This document shows positions 12,862 to 47,203 of a DNA stretch of 64,000 nt, in pieces. The DNA comes from Scatophagus argus (Eukaryota; Chordata; Actinopteri; Scatophagidae). Made by a program: the position numbers and the translations under genes. Position 1 is the stretch's first letter. The number at the start of each line of letters is the position of its first letter. Location of the stretch: contig NC_058504.1 in assembly GCF_020382885.2 (NCBI RefSeq), forward strand, positions 4,633,519 to 4,697,518. The letters are read 5' to 3'. The notes under the pieces are model-generated. The model saw only the letters and a program-made list of their open reading frames with translations, was not told the DNA's origin and made no database searches.

Positions 12862-12870
12862 TGACGTGGC
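12862..12870 (+). promoter_or_regulatory. UPR-element-like motif upstream of the calnexin-like gene
   Basis: TGACGTGGC matches the XBP1/ATF6 unfolded-protein-response element core TGACGTG(G/A). It lies about 300 bp upstream of the first coding exon of the calnexin-derived gene. A GTAAGA donor-like site at 12934 could end a noncoding first exon. The motif match is seen directly; its function and the exon are inferred. Confidence 0.35.
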
Positions 12871-13159
12871 CACTGCATGCTCTGCAGCAATGTCAGCGAG
12901 TGACTTGGGACCAAAGTCCAACATCACATGACTGTAAGATTTCAGGAAGTGACTGTTAAAGAACGCATGTGAGAAATCACTGTGCTTAAAAAGGTTTTTT
13001 TTTTACCACTCTGCTTCCACTGGTACTTTGTGCATGTTTTTTTCATTCTTTTCTGTCCGTTTGTTGTCTTCTGTCTCTCCCTTTGTGCCAATTATCATTT
13101 TGTCCCGGTCTGACCTTTGTTGTCATGAATGTGTGTGTATTTCTGTTTGTGTTTCAGAC

Positions 13160-13638
13160 ATGGAGATCAGCTGTGTGTTGCAGTGCATGATGCTGGTAGC
13201 CAGTGTGACACCAACGTCTGCTGCAGCACAGGTGAGACCTGCCTTTTGTTTGGAGCGGACTAAATCTATTGATCACTGTTAATCATCACATATTACTCAG
13301 TTACGTATGAAACACCTCCTGTAGGGTTTCTAGTTACCCTCCTCAGCGATGCCCCCTTCTTTCATTCTTAATCCCGTTAATTCTCTCTTTATCTCTTCTA
13401 CTACTAACCCTTTTTTCATATAAACATTTTGTGCTCACATTACCCAGGCACTGTGGTCTTTGACCTTCATATTATTTGTTGCTCGTTGTATCTGTATATT
13501 CTAGCCTGGTATCATAGAGAGCCTCCTGCTGGCCACCCACCAGCGTCCCTGGCTCTGGGGTGTTTATGTCTTCACTGTTGGACTTCCCATCATTCTCTTC
13601 ATTAGCTTTGTGTGGCCTGACAAGGTAGTGTGTGCTTG

Positions 13639-13708
<70 letters not shown>

Positions 13709-14451
13709 TTATTGTCCAGCATTAGAAATACAAGAGGCATATGTTTTTCTCTCTCAGGACACAAGAAGCACAAGAAGTAAAATTATGTTTGTGTTTGCTC
13801 GTAGAGGTTTGGGCCCCCTGATCAACAGTATTACTATAAAAAGTCTGATGATGCTCAACCAGATGATCCAGAGTTCTCCCAGGGGACAGAATCATTGGAT
13901 ATCAAGGGTAATGTTTCATTTTTAAATGAATGAGTATTGTCAGACTGTTATATTACAGTAGTTATTTCAGCAGCACTCTTCTCTCCTCAGGGAGGGCTGA
14001 CAGAGCTGTAACAAGGAGGAGAGACACTCATGGAAACCAGAAGACATCTGGCTTAGACCTGAAGGTGAGATTCAGCAGACAATGATCATTCTGAAGGCGA
14101 AAAAGCCCATTTGAAAGTATTATCACAGAGACTGTAAAATAATCTGACAAAGAACAGAATTCAGGAATGTTTGTTAGAAGTCCCCTCCCCCCATTATTAT
14201 TAGCTGAATTGTCTGGCCCTTCAATTATTAGCCCTTTAAGTTTATGCATATCATATTAGAGACCATAAGAACTGATGTACATTTTTCTTGTTGTCTTTCC
14301 AAATGAGCATATTGAATTTTCTGTTGATTTTCTTTATGAATGACTAGTGAACCCGGGGCTTACAACGTCCACTCCTGTTGGGCAGGCCCGAAAACAGTGG
14401 ATAATGACAACTCATTGTGTGTCTGCATGTGTGTGTGTGTAGGATCGCTGA
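13160..14451 (+). CDS. Calnexin/calmegin-derived mini-protein: signal peptide, transmembrane segment and tail only
   Basis: Five exons join in frame to about 125 aa: 13160-13231, 13505-13624, 13805-13907, 13991-14064 and 14443-14451 (GATCGCTGA). Exon 1 (24 aa, starting MEISCVLQC and ending TSAAAQ) looks like a signal peptide. Exon 2 (residues 25-64) has PGIIE, RPWLWGVYVFTVGLPIILF and FVWPDK, matching the membrane-proximal, transmembrane and stop-transfer part of calnexin (PGVVG, RPWLWVVYILTVALPVFL) and calmegin (SFCWPRK). Exon 3 has YYYKKSDDAQPDDPE, like calnexin EYKKTDAPQPD. The tail is short and basic, not long and acidic as in calnexin. The lectin globular domain and P-domain arm are absent, with no room for them between exons 1 and 2 (273-bp intron). 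Without the last splice, exon 4 reads through to end RFSRQ. AATAAA lies at 14746-14751. Expected as a type I ER membrane microprotein; it could alternatively be a decaying relic, but every splice site and frame is intact. Confidence 0.7.
13642..13710. repeat. (CT)n-(GT)n compound microsatellite
   Basis: About 25 CT units followed directly by about 9 GT units, within intron 2 of the calnexin-like gene and starting about 17 bp after the donor at 13625. Confidence 0.95.
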
Positions 14452-14745: not shown

Positions 14746-14751
14746 AATAAA
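14746..14751 (+). terminator. Poly(A) signal of the calnexin-like gene
   Basis: AATAAA about 300 bp after the predicted stop, in AT-rich sequence. This is consistent with a transcribed gene carrying a short 3' UTR. Confidence 0.5.
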
Positions 14752-33409: not shown

Positions 33410-34936
33410 AAGTGTCCATAAAAAGTGTTCATGTCCTTCAGTGTTTCCCTTTTTATTGTTTTTATGAATGGAATCATGGTCAATTTAATATGGCTTTTCT
33501 TGACAGAAATTTACAAAAATACTTTTTTAATGTCAAAATGAAAACAGATTTCTACAAACTAATGTCAATTAATTAAAAATATAAAATTTTAAAAAGGTGA
33601 TTGCACAAATATTCACCCCCTTCAAGTCGGCACACCTTTGCCCATATTCACAGCACTGAGTCTGTGAAGACAGGTCTCAGTCAGGCAATTTTACTCCATT
33701 CTTTTATGCAAAACTGCCACTTTGGCCACTCCAGAACATTCACCTTGTTGTCTTTAAACCATTTTTGCTGTATGTATGAGTCATTGTCTTGCTGGAAAAT
33801 AAATCCTCTCCCAAGTCGTAGTTGTCTTGCAGACTGAATCAGACTGTCCACCAGGACTTCCCTATATTTTGCTGCATTCATTTTACCCCTTTCCAGGGCC
33901 TGCTGCTGAGAAGCATCCCCACAGCAGAAAATGAACATTCTTCAACAGTGACTTTCTCCCATAAAGCTTTGACTGGACCCAGGCAACAGTTGTTGTAAGC
34001 AGAGTCTCTCCCATCTCAGCTGCTGAAGCTTTTAACTCCTTCAGAGTGGTCACAGGTGTCTTGGTAGGCTCCCTCACTAATCTCCTTCTTGCACGGTCAG
34101 TTTGTGAGGACAGCCTGCTCTTGGCAGATTCACACACGCGCTATATTCCTACCATTTCTTAATGCTGCATGTAATTGAACTCCAGGTGATGTTTAGTGAC
34201 TTAGAATTTTTTTGTATCCATCCCCTGACTTATTCTTTTCAATAACCTTTTGTTTGAGTTGCTTGTAGTGTTCTTTTGTGTTCATAGTGTAACTGTAGCC
34301 AGGAATATTGATTATCCAGTGACTGGACCTTCCAGAGCAGCACAGTGGTGCAGTGGTTAGCACTGTTGCCTCATAGCAAGAGGGTTCCAGGTTCGAATCC
34401 CGGTCTGGGCCCTTCTGTGTGGAGTTTGCATGTTCTCCCTGTGCCTGTGTGGGTTTTTTCCAGGTACTCCGGCTTCCTCTCACAATACCAAAAACATGCA
34501 TGTTAGGTTAATTGGCTACTCTAAATTGCCCCTCGCTGGGGTGGATAGGCTCCAGCTCTCCTGTGACCCTGAAGGATAAGCAGTATAGAAAATGGATGGA
34601 TGGATGTCTTTATACTACAGTCACTTGAGACACATTCACTGCACTCAGGCAATCTGCATTTCGCTAACTGTGAGACTACAAGCATCAACTGGCTGGAGCT
34701 TTGCTGAATTAGGTCAGTCAGTTTAAGGGGGGTAAATATTTACACAATCATTTATTTTACATGATATACTGTATTTTTAATTAATTGGTATAACTTTGTA
34801 TAAATCTGTTTTCACTTTGACATTAAAGGGACTTTTTTGTAAATCTTCATCAGAAAAGCAAAAAAATATGATTACGTTCATAAAAACAATAAAAGGTGGA
34901 AACCTGGAAGGTGATGGATACTTTTTATAGGCACTA
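33410..34936 (-). mobile_element. Tc1-like DNA transposon, dead, with internal deletions and nested SINE
   Basis: Long inverted terminal repeats: left starts AGTGTCCATAAAAAG at about 33411, right ends CTTTTTATAGGCACTA near 34936, each next to TA. Subterminal blocks (GAAAACAGATTTCTACAAAC at the left, its complement at the right) mark repeats of about 180-200 bp. Transposase remnants read on the minus strand: N-terminal KEHYKQLKQKVIEK and GDGYKKILSH, then TLKELKASAAEMGETL, LLWGCFSAAGPGKG, and LIQSARQLRLGRGFIFQQDND with VLEWP. The part between KSLLK and LWGCFS and the part after VLEWP are deleted, removing catalytic-core sequence. A V-SINE sits between the right terminal repeat and the ORF start. 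Confidence 0.88.
34327..34609 (+). mobile_element. V-SINE-type tRNA-derived SINE nested in the Tc1 element
   Basis: Has a tRNA-like head with A-box-like GTGGTGCAGTGGTTAGCA and B box GGTTCGAATCC, the central block GTGGAGTTTGCATGTTCTCC, then TAATTGGCTACTCTAAATTG, tail GGATAGGCTCCAGCT and terminal ATGGATGGATG. Compared with the uninterrupted Tc1 copy at 46.0 kb, it lies between CTTCCA and GTCTTTATACTACAG, so it inserted into the transposon. The tail is shorter than in the 21-kb copy. Confidence 0.85.
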
Positions 34937-45659: not shown

Positions 45660-47203
45660 CAATACCTATAAAAAGTACTCCCTCCACCCTCTTGGATGTT
45701 TTCTCTTGTCATTGCTTTTATAAATAGAATCATTTTTAAAACAAAACTTTACAAAAAAGACTTTAGTGTGAAAATGAAATCAAATTTCTGCAAAGTAATG
45801 TTAATTATTTAAAAATATATAATAGAGAATAAGTGATGGCATAAATATTTGCCTCCTTTAAAATGACTGACCTAATTCAACAGAAGTCCAGACAACTTTT
45901 GCTTGTAGCCTCACAGTTAATAAGATGGAGATCACCTGAGTGCAGTGAATGTGTCTCAAGTGACTGTAGTATAAAGACACGTGTGCATGGAAGGTCCAGT
46001 CACTGGTTAATCAATATTACAGGCTACAATTACACCATAAAGACAAAAGAACACTCCAAGCAACTTAGAGAAAAGGGTTATAGAAAAGCATAAGTCAGGG
46101 GATGGATACAAAAAATTTCTCAGTCACTGAATATCCCCTGGAGTTCAATCAAATGCATCATTAGGAAATGGAAGGAATATGGCTCATGTGTGAATCTGCC
46201 AAGAGCAGGCTGTCCTCACAATCTGAGTGACTGTGCAAGAGGGAGAGTGGTGATGAAGGCTGACAAGACACCTGCGACCACTCTGAAGGAGTTAAAAGCT
46301 TCAGCAGCTGAGATGGGAGAGTCTCTGCATACAACAACTGTTGCCTTGGTTCCTCATTAGTCAAAGCTTTATGGAAGAAAGCTCATAGATCTCATTAGAA
46401 TTTGTTTTAAAGGTACAAGGTCAACTGGAAGTAGATTCTTTGGTCTGATGAGACCAAAATAGAGTTTTTTTGGCCATCAGACTAGATGCTATGTTTGGCA
46501 GACATCAGACACTGCACATCACCACAAACACCATCCCCACTACGAAGCACAGTGGTGGCAGCTAGTGGGGATGCTTCAGAGCAACAGGCCTTGGAAGGCT
46601 TGCTTGAGTTACAGGGTAAAATGAATGCAGCAAAATATAATCCTGAGGACAATCTGATTCAGTCTGCAAGAAAACTACGACTTGGGAGAGGATTCATATT
46701 CCAGCAAGACAATGAGGCATACAGCAAAAGATACACAGAAATGGTTTAGAGACAACTAGGTGACTGTTCTGGAGTGGCCAAATCAAATCTCAGACCTCAG
46801 TCCAAAACAGAATTTGTGGCTGGACTTGAAAATAACTGTTTACGCCCAACTCCTGTGCTACCTGACAGAGTTTGAGCGGTTTTGCAAAAAAGAATGGAGT
46901 AAAATTGAATTGTCCAGATGTGCAAGCCTGACTGAGGCCTGTCCACACAGATTTAGTGATGCGATTGTGGCCAAAGGTGTATATACTAAATACTGAATTG
47001 AAACAGGGGAATATTTATGCAATTACTTACATATCTTTAATTAATTGACATTACTTTGCAGAAATCTGTTTTCACTTTGACATTGAGGTATTTTTTGTAA
47101 ATTTTTGCAAGAAAAGCCAAATTAAATTGATTATGATTCCATTCATGAAAACAATACAAGGGAAAACATCCAAGGGGTTGAATGGCACTTTTTATGGACA
47201 CTG
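45660..47203 (+). mobile_element. Tc1-like DNA transposon, nearly full length, inactivated
   Basis: About 1.54 kb. The left terminal repeat starts near 45660 (CCTATAAAAAGTACT), and the right ends TTTTTATGGACACTG at 47203 followed by TA. The terminal repeats extend about 190 bp. Transposase on the + strand is broken over frames: KTKEHSKQLREKGYRKA near 46038-46090 then a stop, TLKELKASAAEMGES near 46280-46320, a catalytic-core region with LIQSARKLRLGRGFIFQQDN at about 46650-46710, then VLEWPNQISDLSP, LWLDLKI, LTEFERFCKKEWSKI and VAKGVYTKY to 46996. Stops and frameshifts preclude activity. It is the same family as the 33.4-kb copy, in opposite orientation. Confidence 0.9.

What the first reader, a model, noticed from the sequence alone, without database searches (positions are those of the whole stretch)
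13160..14451. A calnexin/calmegin gene stripped to signal peptide, membrane anchor and tail
Four introns with good splice sites join a signal-peptide-like exon directly to exons matching the calnexin/calmegin transmembrane segment (RPWLW..Y..TV.LP) and proximal tail (YYYKKSDDAQPDDPE). The lectin and P domains that define the family are absent, and the 273-bp first intron has no room for them. Frames and phases are preserved across all joins, which is unexpected for a neutral relic. The product would be an ER membrane microprotein of about 125 aa that might mimic the calnexin anchor (palmitoylation, ribosome/translocon contacts, assembly) without binding glycans. The tail has lost the acidic run and ends LDLKDR.
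Basis: partly seen in the sequence, partly recalled or inferred. Interest (0 to 1): 0.82.

Follow-up and report, generated by a model that had tools for sequence, protein, structure and literature searches.

The report
A calnexin reduced to its anchor
Spiny-rayed fish carry a small conserved gene descended from a third calnexin (a protein-folding helper of the cell's secretory membrane) that has lost its whole sugar-binding part and kept only the signal peptide, membrane anchor and short tail, which suggests that the anchor does a job of its own.

Summary
Confirmed, and larger than reported. The five-exon, 125-aa model is exact and 100% identical to a database protein, calnexin-like [Scatophagus argus]. 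Short relatives from about 70 named fish mostly share the layout signal peptide / calnexin transmembrane segment / RFGPPDxxYYYKK tail. It is not a stripped canx or clgn: both lie elsewhere in this genome with lectin exons. It belongs to a third calnexin paralogue, full-length in sharks, bichir, sturgeon and several teleost groups. Loss was stepwise: the P-domain decayed in cypriniforms and is gone in salmonids, Umbra and Osmerus, which keep the lectin domain; short forms make one clade inside the long ones, 98/98. Anchor and juxtamembrane residues stay near-invariant while the distal tail drifts, so a neutral relic is unlikely. Function is inferred: a lectin-less ER microprotein acting at the translocon/TRAP or on membrane clients. 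RNA reads and dN/dS could not be examined.

The parts
12862..12869 (+). TGACGTGG, a UPRE-like (ATF6/XBP1) motif upstream of the gene; may be chance
   Evidence: 2 matches to TGACGTGR in the 64-kb window (both strands), one of them here; none in the 9-kb canx and clgn loci; no ERSE match in any of the three. Motif name recalled.
12928..12972 (+). Short upstream ORF (MTVRFQEVTVKERM*), resembling the N-terminal extension of some database models; possible 5' leader
   Evidence: position, translation; P0012 begins MTTRIQEVTFKERVES
13160..13231 (+). Signal-peptide-like exon, MEISCVLQCMMLVASVTPTSAAAQ, phase 0 end; 3' splice site directly before it
   Evidence: identical to P0001 residues 1-24; same arrangement before the ATG of canx/clgn. 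No signal-peptide predictor was run.
13505..13624 (+). Lumenal stub + transmembrane exon, PGIIESLLLATHQRPWLWGVYVFTVGLPIILFISFVWPDK, phase 0/0
   Evidence: same boundaries and phase as the TM exons of clgn (117 bp) and canx (120 bp) of this genome, read
13805..13907 (+). Juxtamembrane cytosolic exon, RFGPPDQQYYYKKSDDAQPDDPEFSQGTESLDIK(G)
   Evidence: R65-P68 and Y75 invariant in 76 short forms
13991..14064 (+). Distal tail exon, (G)RADRAVTRRRDTHGNQKTSGLDLK
   Evidence: aligns with RKRDSQRAQKKSDLELK of Osmerus P0123
14443..14451 (+). Last two codons (DR) and stop TGA
   Evidence: DR end identical in P0001
14475..14480 (+). AATAAA polyadenylation-signal candidate (another at 14746-14751)
   Evidence: read from the sequence

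Best explanation
The locus is a working protein-coding gene: the Scatophagus argus member of a third vertebrate calnexin paralogue that lost its P-domain and then its whole lectin domain before the acanthomorph radiation. SHOWN by sequence: intact five-exon frame, calnexin-type exon borders, conservation in short relatives of about 70 named fish, nesting of short forms inside the long paralogue. INFERRED: the signal peptide targets it to the ER and is cut, leaving a type I microprotein of about 100 aa with a lumenal stub of roughly 15 residues, one calnexin-type helix and a 63-residue near-neutral cytosolic tail. It should not bind monoglucosylated glycans or ERp57, because those domains are missing. 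MECHANISM, inferred, about 30% likely: it works through the conserved helix and the WPDKRFGPPDxxYYYKKSD juxtamembrane segment, occupying the place that calnexin's anchor is thought to take beside TRAP-gamma at the ribosome-translocon, and so tuning membrane-protein biogenesis without entering the glycan cycle; holding client transmembrane helices is about as likely (see rivals).
For: Exact model and identical database protein. TM-exon borders and phases equal to canx/clgn of the same genome. Third-paralogue rows are one side of a 100/99 branch in a 32-row tree. Short forms are one clade inside the long ones in two anchor trees: 99/94 with calmegins and 98/98 without them. Domain map of 43 rows shows graded loss. 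In 76 short forms the juxtamembrane and core TM residues are near-invariant; in 10 representatives anchor identity is 0.78 against 0.29 in the distal tail of the same genes. Mean anchor identity to shark, sturgeon and Chanos outgroups is 0.62, 0.66 and 0.77, against 0.62-0.67, 0.68-0.72 and 0.83-0.87 for four lectin-bearing forms. Three short-form ORFs in 'lgn' contigs (which I take to be SRA assemblies) have TM and cytosolic exons joined without intron (P0030, P0049, P0069), as spliced RNA would. AF2 gives helices 2-15, 27-37, 40-60 and no ordered tail. A TMD and cytoplasmic helix on TRAP-gamma was provisionally assigned to calnexin in cryo-EM (PMC11186639, passages).
Against: No RNA-seq, proteomics or localisation data were available; most relatives are automatic gene models. 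dN/dS not computed: no DNA of other fish. The anchor evolves somewhat faster in short forms (mean within-group identity 0.795 over 76, or 0.80 over 74 without two doubtful rows, against 0.85-0.91 within five long groups). The TRAP idea is weakened because the same paper calls di-palmitoylation crucial for the TRAP-calnexin contact while 0 of 76 short forms have those cysteines. AF2 pTM is 0.28 and the tail is below 60 pLDDT, so no cytosolic helix is predicted.
Confidence: 0.87

Rival explanations
1. Decaying remnant: the lectin exons were lost and the anchor exons are a slowly eroding relic that still has an open frame by chance or recent loss.
For: Anchor slightly faster in short forms than in long groups; the distal tail and C-terminus differ between lineages; several short models lack pieces, e.g. 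P0063 without a proper N-terminus and P0057 without signal peptide.
Against: Near-invariant anchor in 76 short forms including Lampris, Gadus and percomorphs, with a much more variable tail in the same genes. A neutral relic of that age would not be expected to keep R65-P68, GLP and YYYKK. Intact frame across five exons.
Confidence: 0.05
2. Annotation artefact: the short proteins are fragments of full-length calnexins whose lectin exons were missed by gene prediction.
For: Some database models of this paralogue clearly are partial or odd (sturgeon P0073, 208 aa, versus P0081 of another sturgeon, 546 aa; Labrus P0074 without TM exon; Myxine P0126).
Against: In this genome the intervening DNA was read: intron 1 is 273 bp and no credible lectin match was found. 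All 25 calreticulin-family matches scored in the genome fall at five other places, canx, clgn and three calreticulin-type loci. Short forms form one clade, not scattered losses.
Confidence: 0.03
3. Real gene, but the anchor acts as an intramembrane chaperone for client transmembrane helices and not at TRAP or the ribosome.
For: The title of a 2022 study, seen only in reference lists (paper not held), says that calnexin recognises clients within the membrane. The TM core is conserved, including GLP, L55 and F56.
Against: The longest invariant run lies at and just outside the membrane border (WP.KRFGPP..YYYKK), pointing to a cytosolic or interface partner.
Confidence: 0.3
4. Real gene acting as a competitor: it occupies calnexin's membrane or translocon sites and so lowers lectin-chaperone recruitment.
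For: It keeps a calnexin-type anchor (51% and 46% identity to the clgn and canx TM exons of the same genome) and lacks the lectin.
Against: No binding data. Absence of the CC pair and a different juxtamembrane segment (WPDKRFGPP versus CCSGKKQ) argue for a different partner rather than competition.
Confidence: 0.2

Closest known systems
Third vertebrate calnexin paralogue, full-length form (si:ch211-274f20.2 type; e.g. sturgeon P0081, Hemiscyllium P0093, Chanos P0095)
   Same: Anchor and proximal tail: RPWLWG.YVF.V.LP.....WP.KRFGPP...YYKK or close to it; in many bony fish a C-terminal KKSDLELK-like end; signal-peptide part followed by Q in many bony-fish forms. By trees the short forms lie inside this group.
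   Different: Full-length forms keep the lectin and P domains; S. argus keeps neither.
Lectin-only members of the same paralogue in salmonids, Umbra and Osmerus (P0094, P0104, P0096, P0123)
   Same: Same anchor and tail; P-domain already gone.
   Different: Lectin domain retained with 5 of 6 glycan-site residues examined; E217 is Q in 4 of 4, as it already is in Amia, Anguilla and Albula forms that keep the P-domain.
Calnexin (CANX)
   Same: Signal peptide, type I anchor RPWLW..Y..TV.LP, proximal YKKTD..QPD tail; TM exon borders and phases.
   Different: No lectin or P domain, no palmitoylated CC, no strongly acidic tail, no RNRKPRRE-type end.
Calmegin (CLGN)
   Same: WP after the TM segment; TM exon borders.

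Membership tests
Calnexin family (PF00262 membrane-bound lectin chaperones) | Globular lectin domain with glycan-site residues | tested here: not met
   No Pfam hit; no credible lectin exon in the window; in 10 of 10 short rows the lectin columns hold only stray residues (S. argus 12 of 218 and 3 of 61; the most are Gadus 43 of 218 and Nothobranchius 24 of 61), with no glycan-site residue kept
Calnexin family (PF00262 membrane-bound lectin chaperones) | P-domain arm with repeat motifs (ERp57 site) | tested here: not met
   0 of 131 P-domain columns and no motif 1 or 2 in 10 of 10 short rows (the motif patterns also undercount in true P-domains)
Calnexin family (PF00262 membrane-bound lectin chaperones) | Calnexin-type transmembrane segment at matching exon borders | tested here: met
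   E 7.4e-13 to calnexin 8rjc_9; same exon borders and phase as canx/clgn
Calnexin family (PF00262 membrane-bound lectin chaperones) | Juxtamembrane cysteine pair for palmitoylation | tested here: not met
   0 of 76 short forms have Cys at these positions; 0 of 74 without two doubtful rows
Third calnexin paralogue (si:ch211-274f20.2 type), by descent | Groups with the long forms of that paralogue and not with canx/clgn | tested here: met
   28 short and long rows on one side of a 93/92 branch (long-branch warning for the calmegin rows, rough bootstrap); 100/100 when both calmegins are left out. Only 76 columns.
Third calnexin paralogue (si:ch211-274f20.2 type), by descent | RFGPPD..YYYKK juxtamembrane signature | tested here: met
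   Present in S. argus and, with small changes, in sturgeon, bichir, Amia, shark and teleost long forms
Third calnexin paralogue (si:ch211-274f20.2 type), by descent | Conserved gene neighbourhood (CNG channel - gene - fibrinogen-like) in long-form species | not tested
   Window order shown by Pfam and by fused models P0119 (Scortum) and P0124 (Etheostoma); no DNA of long-form species
ER-resident type I membrane protein | ER localisation and topology | not testable with these tools
   Only a signal-peptide-like N-terminus and one predicted long helix, 40-60

The most novel reading that the evidence does not exclude
The anchor, not the lectin, was the indispensable part of this calnexin paralogue all along: a lectin-independent translocon or intramembrane function, carried by the transmembrane helix and the WPDKRFGPPDxxYYYKKSD segment since the shark-bony fish ancestor, let the P-domain and then the lectin domain be discarded step by step, leaving in acanthomorphs a natural experiment that isolates the calnexin anchor's own activity.
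Probability: 0.4. Interest if true: 0.8.

Novelty: new variant of a known kind. Interest (0 to 1): 0.64.

Why it matters
Calnexin is usually presented as a lectin chaperone tethered by an anchor. A paralogue that keeps the anchor nearly unchanged while discarding first the P-domain and then the lectin domain, over a graded series of living fish, argues that the anchor and its juxtamembrane segment have a selected function of their own. It supplies a ready-made minimal protein for testing what calnexin's anchor does at TRAP/Sec61 or to membrane clients, free of glycan binding. It also shows that 'calnexin-like' database labels on the short fish proteins would mislead anyone assuming a lectin.

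Tried and rejected
Hidden lectin exons: searched with five relatives, none credible. Origin from canx or clgn: rejected by the trees, both genes being present elsewhere with lectin and P exons. A second copy of the short gene in the genome: only this locus plus the canx and clgn TM exons matched up to E 10, among the 4 candidates scored. Palmitoylated-anchor idea: no cysteines. Loss of an acidic run: the five long forms measured lack it too. UPR control: one UPRE-like motif about 290 bp before the ATG, but none in the canx/clgn loci used for comparison, so weak. Fold search: not run, since a single-helix model with pTM 0.28 would give meaningless matches. dN/dS: not possible, because the collections that give DNA hold, as described, bacteria, archaea, viruses, phages and plasmids.

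Dropped before counting were P0057, P0071 and P0174, whose N-terminal side is too short; P0071 is an eel fragment of a long form. The anchor tree was rebuilt without calmegins because one search warned of long branches. In one search five rows (Umbra, Osmerus, Carassius, Oncorhynchus, Amia) have unusual composition.

Literature: two searches found no paper. The listings (7; 20 of 26; 9; 20 of 97; 20 of 28; 15; 1; 14) showed, by title or abstract start, no description of a lectin-less calnexin; the library is open-licence PMC only. A medaka paper (passages) clones one CNX; a salmon paper (passages) reports two duplicate calnexin loci. It cites a rainbow-trout paper on two calnexin genes encoding distinct proteins, which is not held, so I cannot say whether that concerns this paralogue.

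Full report
WHAT IS THERE. The protein equals, over its full 125 residues, a UniRef/nr entry called calnexin-like from Scatophagus argus, so the window is from the spotted scat or a very close relative; the lineage is Acanthomorphata, Percomorphaceae. Neighbours by Pfam, each from one or two open frames, are a calponin-homology gene at the left edge (plastin-type by my reading), a cyclic-nucleotide-gated channel ending near 11.85 kb, and a fibrinogen-C gene at about 16.7-18.8 kb. Two fused database models, P0124 (Etheostoma, channel + this gene) and P0119 (Scortum, this gene + fibrinogen-C), show the same order.

RELATIVES. The first protein search listed 80 proteins, mostly of 97-135 aa and mostly named calnexin-like or calmegin-like, one Si:ch211-274f20.2, with the same layout in most. 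With the profile search (120 of 128 listed) I count short forms from 74 named fish, plus one labelled lamprey that is probably contamination; I take the fish to be acanthomorphs, having looked up only three of their lineages and that of Osmerus. A search scored on the anchor of a sturgeon relative but open to long proteins found 80 proteins among 89 candidates. The best 43 rows (94-141 bits) are, apart from one fused model, long proteins carrying the RFGPP..YYYKK-type tail, from sharks, rays, bichir, sturgeon, Amia, eels, anchovy and Denticeps, carps, catfishes, characins, salmonids and smelt, plus two unnamed contigs. Tetrapod entries in that list were named calnexin or CALX and scored 61 bits or less. 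That is no proof of absence in tetrapods; gar, coelacanth and lungfish did not appear by name. In this genome the calreticulin family occurs at five places: two calnexin-type genes (C2 5.30 Mb, which I read as calmegin; C12 23.4 Mb, calnexin) and three that I read as calreticulins. The anchor search matches only this locus and the TM exons of those two genes.

DESCENT. In a 32-row tree of long proteins, 19 rows of the third paralogue are one side of a branch with support 100/99, apart from 10 calnexins, 2 calmegins and a hagfish protein. In a 40-row tree of the anchor region alone (76 columns) the 12 short forms make one clade, 99/94, among the long forms, and canx + clgn stand apart, 93/92; that tree carried a long-branch warning for the calmegins and an unsettled bootstrap. 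Rebuilt without them, the short clade has 98/98 and the split from calnexin 100/100. So one loss of the lectin suffices for the species sampled, between the split from Osmerus (Stomiati) and the split of Lampris and Gadus from other acanthomorphs. No aulopiform or myctophid was identified among the names listed.

STEPWISE STRIPPING. Nine cypriniforms have 3-74 and no repeat motif by my pattern. Four salmonid/Umbra/Osmerus rows have 6-10 while keeping 211-217 of 218 lectin-N columns. Ten short rows have 0. Some long rows are imperfect models: Ictalurus and Tachysurus lack the last lectin part, Denticeps lacks part of the lectin, and Garra (195 aa) keeps only ends. Glycan-site residues Y165, K167, Y186, M189 and E426 are kept in the four P-less euteleost rows, and E217 is Q in all four; E217 is also changed in Amia, eels, Albula and Gymnothorax, which keep the P-domain, and in Carassius. 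Residue roles are recalled. P-domain loss in cypriniforms looks independent of that in salmonids and smelt, because Chanos, characins and most catfish rows keep the domain.

WHY THE FRAME SURVIVED. In the genome's canx and clgn, the exon carrying the signal peptide ends in phase 0 and the TM exon starts in phase 0 with PG/PS; in both, a 3' splice site lies directly before the coding part of the ATG exon, as in this gene (read by eye). Joining the signal-peptide exon to the TM exon is therefore in frame, so one deletion, or fixation of an exon-skipping isoform, could strip all remaining lumenal exons at a stroke (inference). Long bony-fish forms often have Q at the end of the signal-peptide part, as S. 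argus has.

CONSTRAINT. Of 79 short sequences with the motif, 76 had enough N-terminal sequence and were counted; a few species occur twice and two rows are doubtful. R65, F66, G67, P68, Y75, W61, P62, G50, L51, P52, L55 and F56 are in 76 of 76, and the same stay invariant in the 74 rows left without the doubtful two. Over 10 diverse short forms, mean pairwise identity is 0.78 in the anchor block and 0.29 in the distal tail. Distances to fixed outgroups are close to those of lectin-bearing forms, modestly larger from Chanos and sturgeon. Within-group identity is lower than in five long groups (0.795 versus 0.85-0.91), so some acceleration is likely. S. argus itself carries V60 where 73 of 76 have M. 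This pattern fits purifying selection on the anchor, not decay, but it is a protein-level argument drawn from gene models; dN/dS is outstanding.

EXPRESSION. No RNA-seq was available. Of 28 proteins known only from 'lgn' contigs in the hit lists, 6 have the TM and cytosolic exons joined without intron (short: P0030, P0049, P0069; long: P0108, P0113, P0168) and 22 do not, running into intron or lacking the motif. Joined exons on 0.9-4 kb contigs are what cDNA would give; that is an inference about contigs that I could not read, and P0030 also carries sequence like that just before the ATG here.

MECHANISM. The product should be a type I ER protein: signal peptide, a stub with a predicted helix 27-37, a membrane helix 40-60 and a disordered tail (mean pLDDT 60.5). 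Calnexin's TM segment and a cytoplasmic helix have been provisionally placed on TRAP-gamma in ribosome-translocon maps, with the tail near 28S rRNA (PMC11186639, passages). The retained part of this protein corresponds to that part. Against a simple copy of calnexin's contact: the paper states that di-palmitoylation is crucial, and the cysteines are absent here. The juxtamembrane segment WPDKRFGPPD..YYYKK, characteristic of this paralogue, may supply a different membrane-interface contact. A second possibility is direct binding of client TM helices, a property of calnexin known to me here only from the title of a 2022 EMBO J paper in reference lists. I give about 30% to the translocon reading and 30% to the client reading.

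VERDICT. A conserved, already auto-annotated, but in the searches made undescribed domain-stripped calnexin. It is a calnexin by descent but not by the defining lectin feature, and it most likely works through its anchor.

Noticed in passing
window 12862-12972: UPRE-like TGACGTGG followed about 60 bp on by a 14-codon upstream ORF similar to N-terminal extensions of some database models (P0012, P0027); possible promoter and 5' leader.
   Followed up: partly
P0074, P0079 (Labrus bergylta models): Predicted isoforms skip the TM exon and join the signal-peptide exon to RFGPPD, which would give a non-membrane product.
   Followed up: no
P0126 (Myxine glutinosa model, 317 aa): A hagfish calnexin-type model joins an N-terminal acidic part directly to the TM segment without lectin; artefact or an isoform of the same kind.
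   Followed up: no
P0035 (labelled Lampetra planeri): A percomorph-like short form on a 28-kb contig assigned to a lamprey; probably contamination.
   Followed up: no
window 33883-34140 (-) and 46094-46996 (+): Open frames resembling Tc1/mariner-type transposase fragments (recalled resemblance, no search made).
   Followed up: no
P0050, P0052, P0058, P0064, P0065: Some short forms (surfperch, mullet, rainbowfish, killifish, Goodea) end differently, in an HKRM-, HKRT- or HQRS-type tail in place of KSDLDLKD.
   Followed up: no
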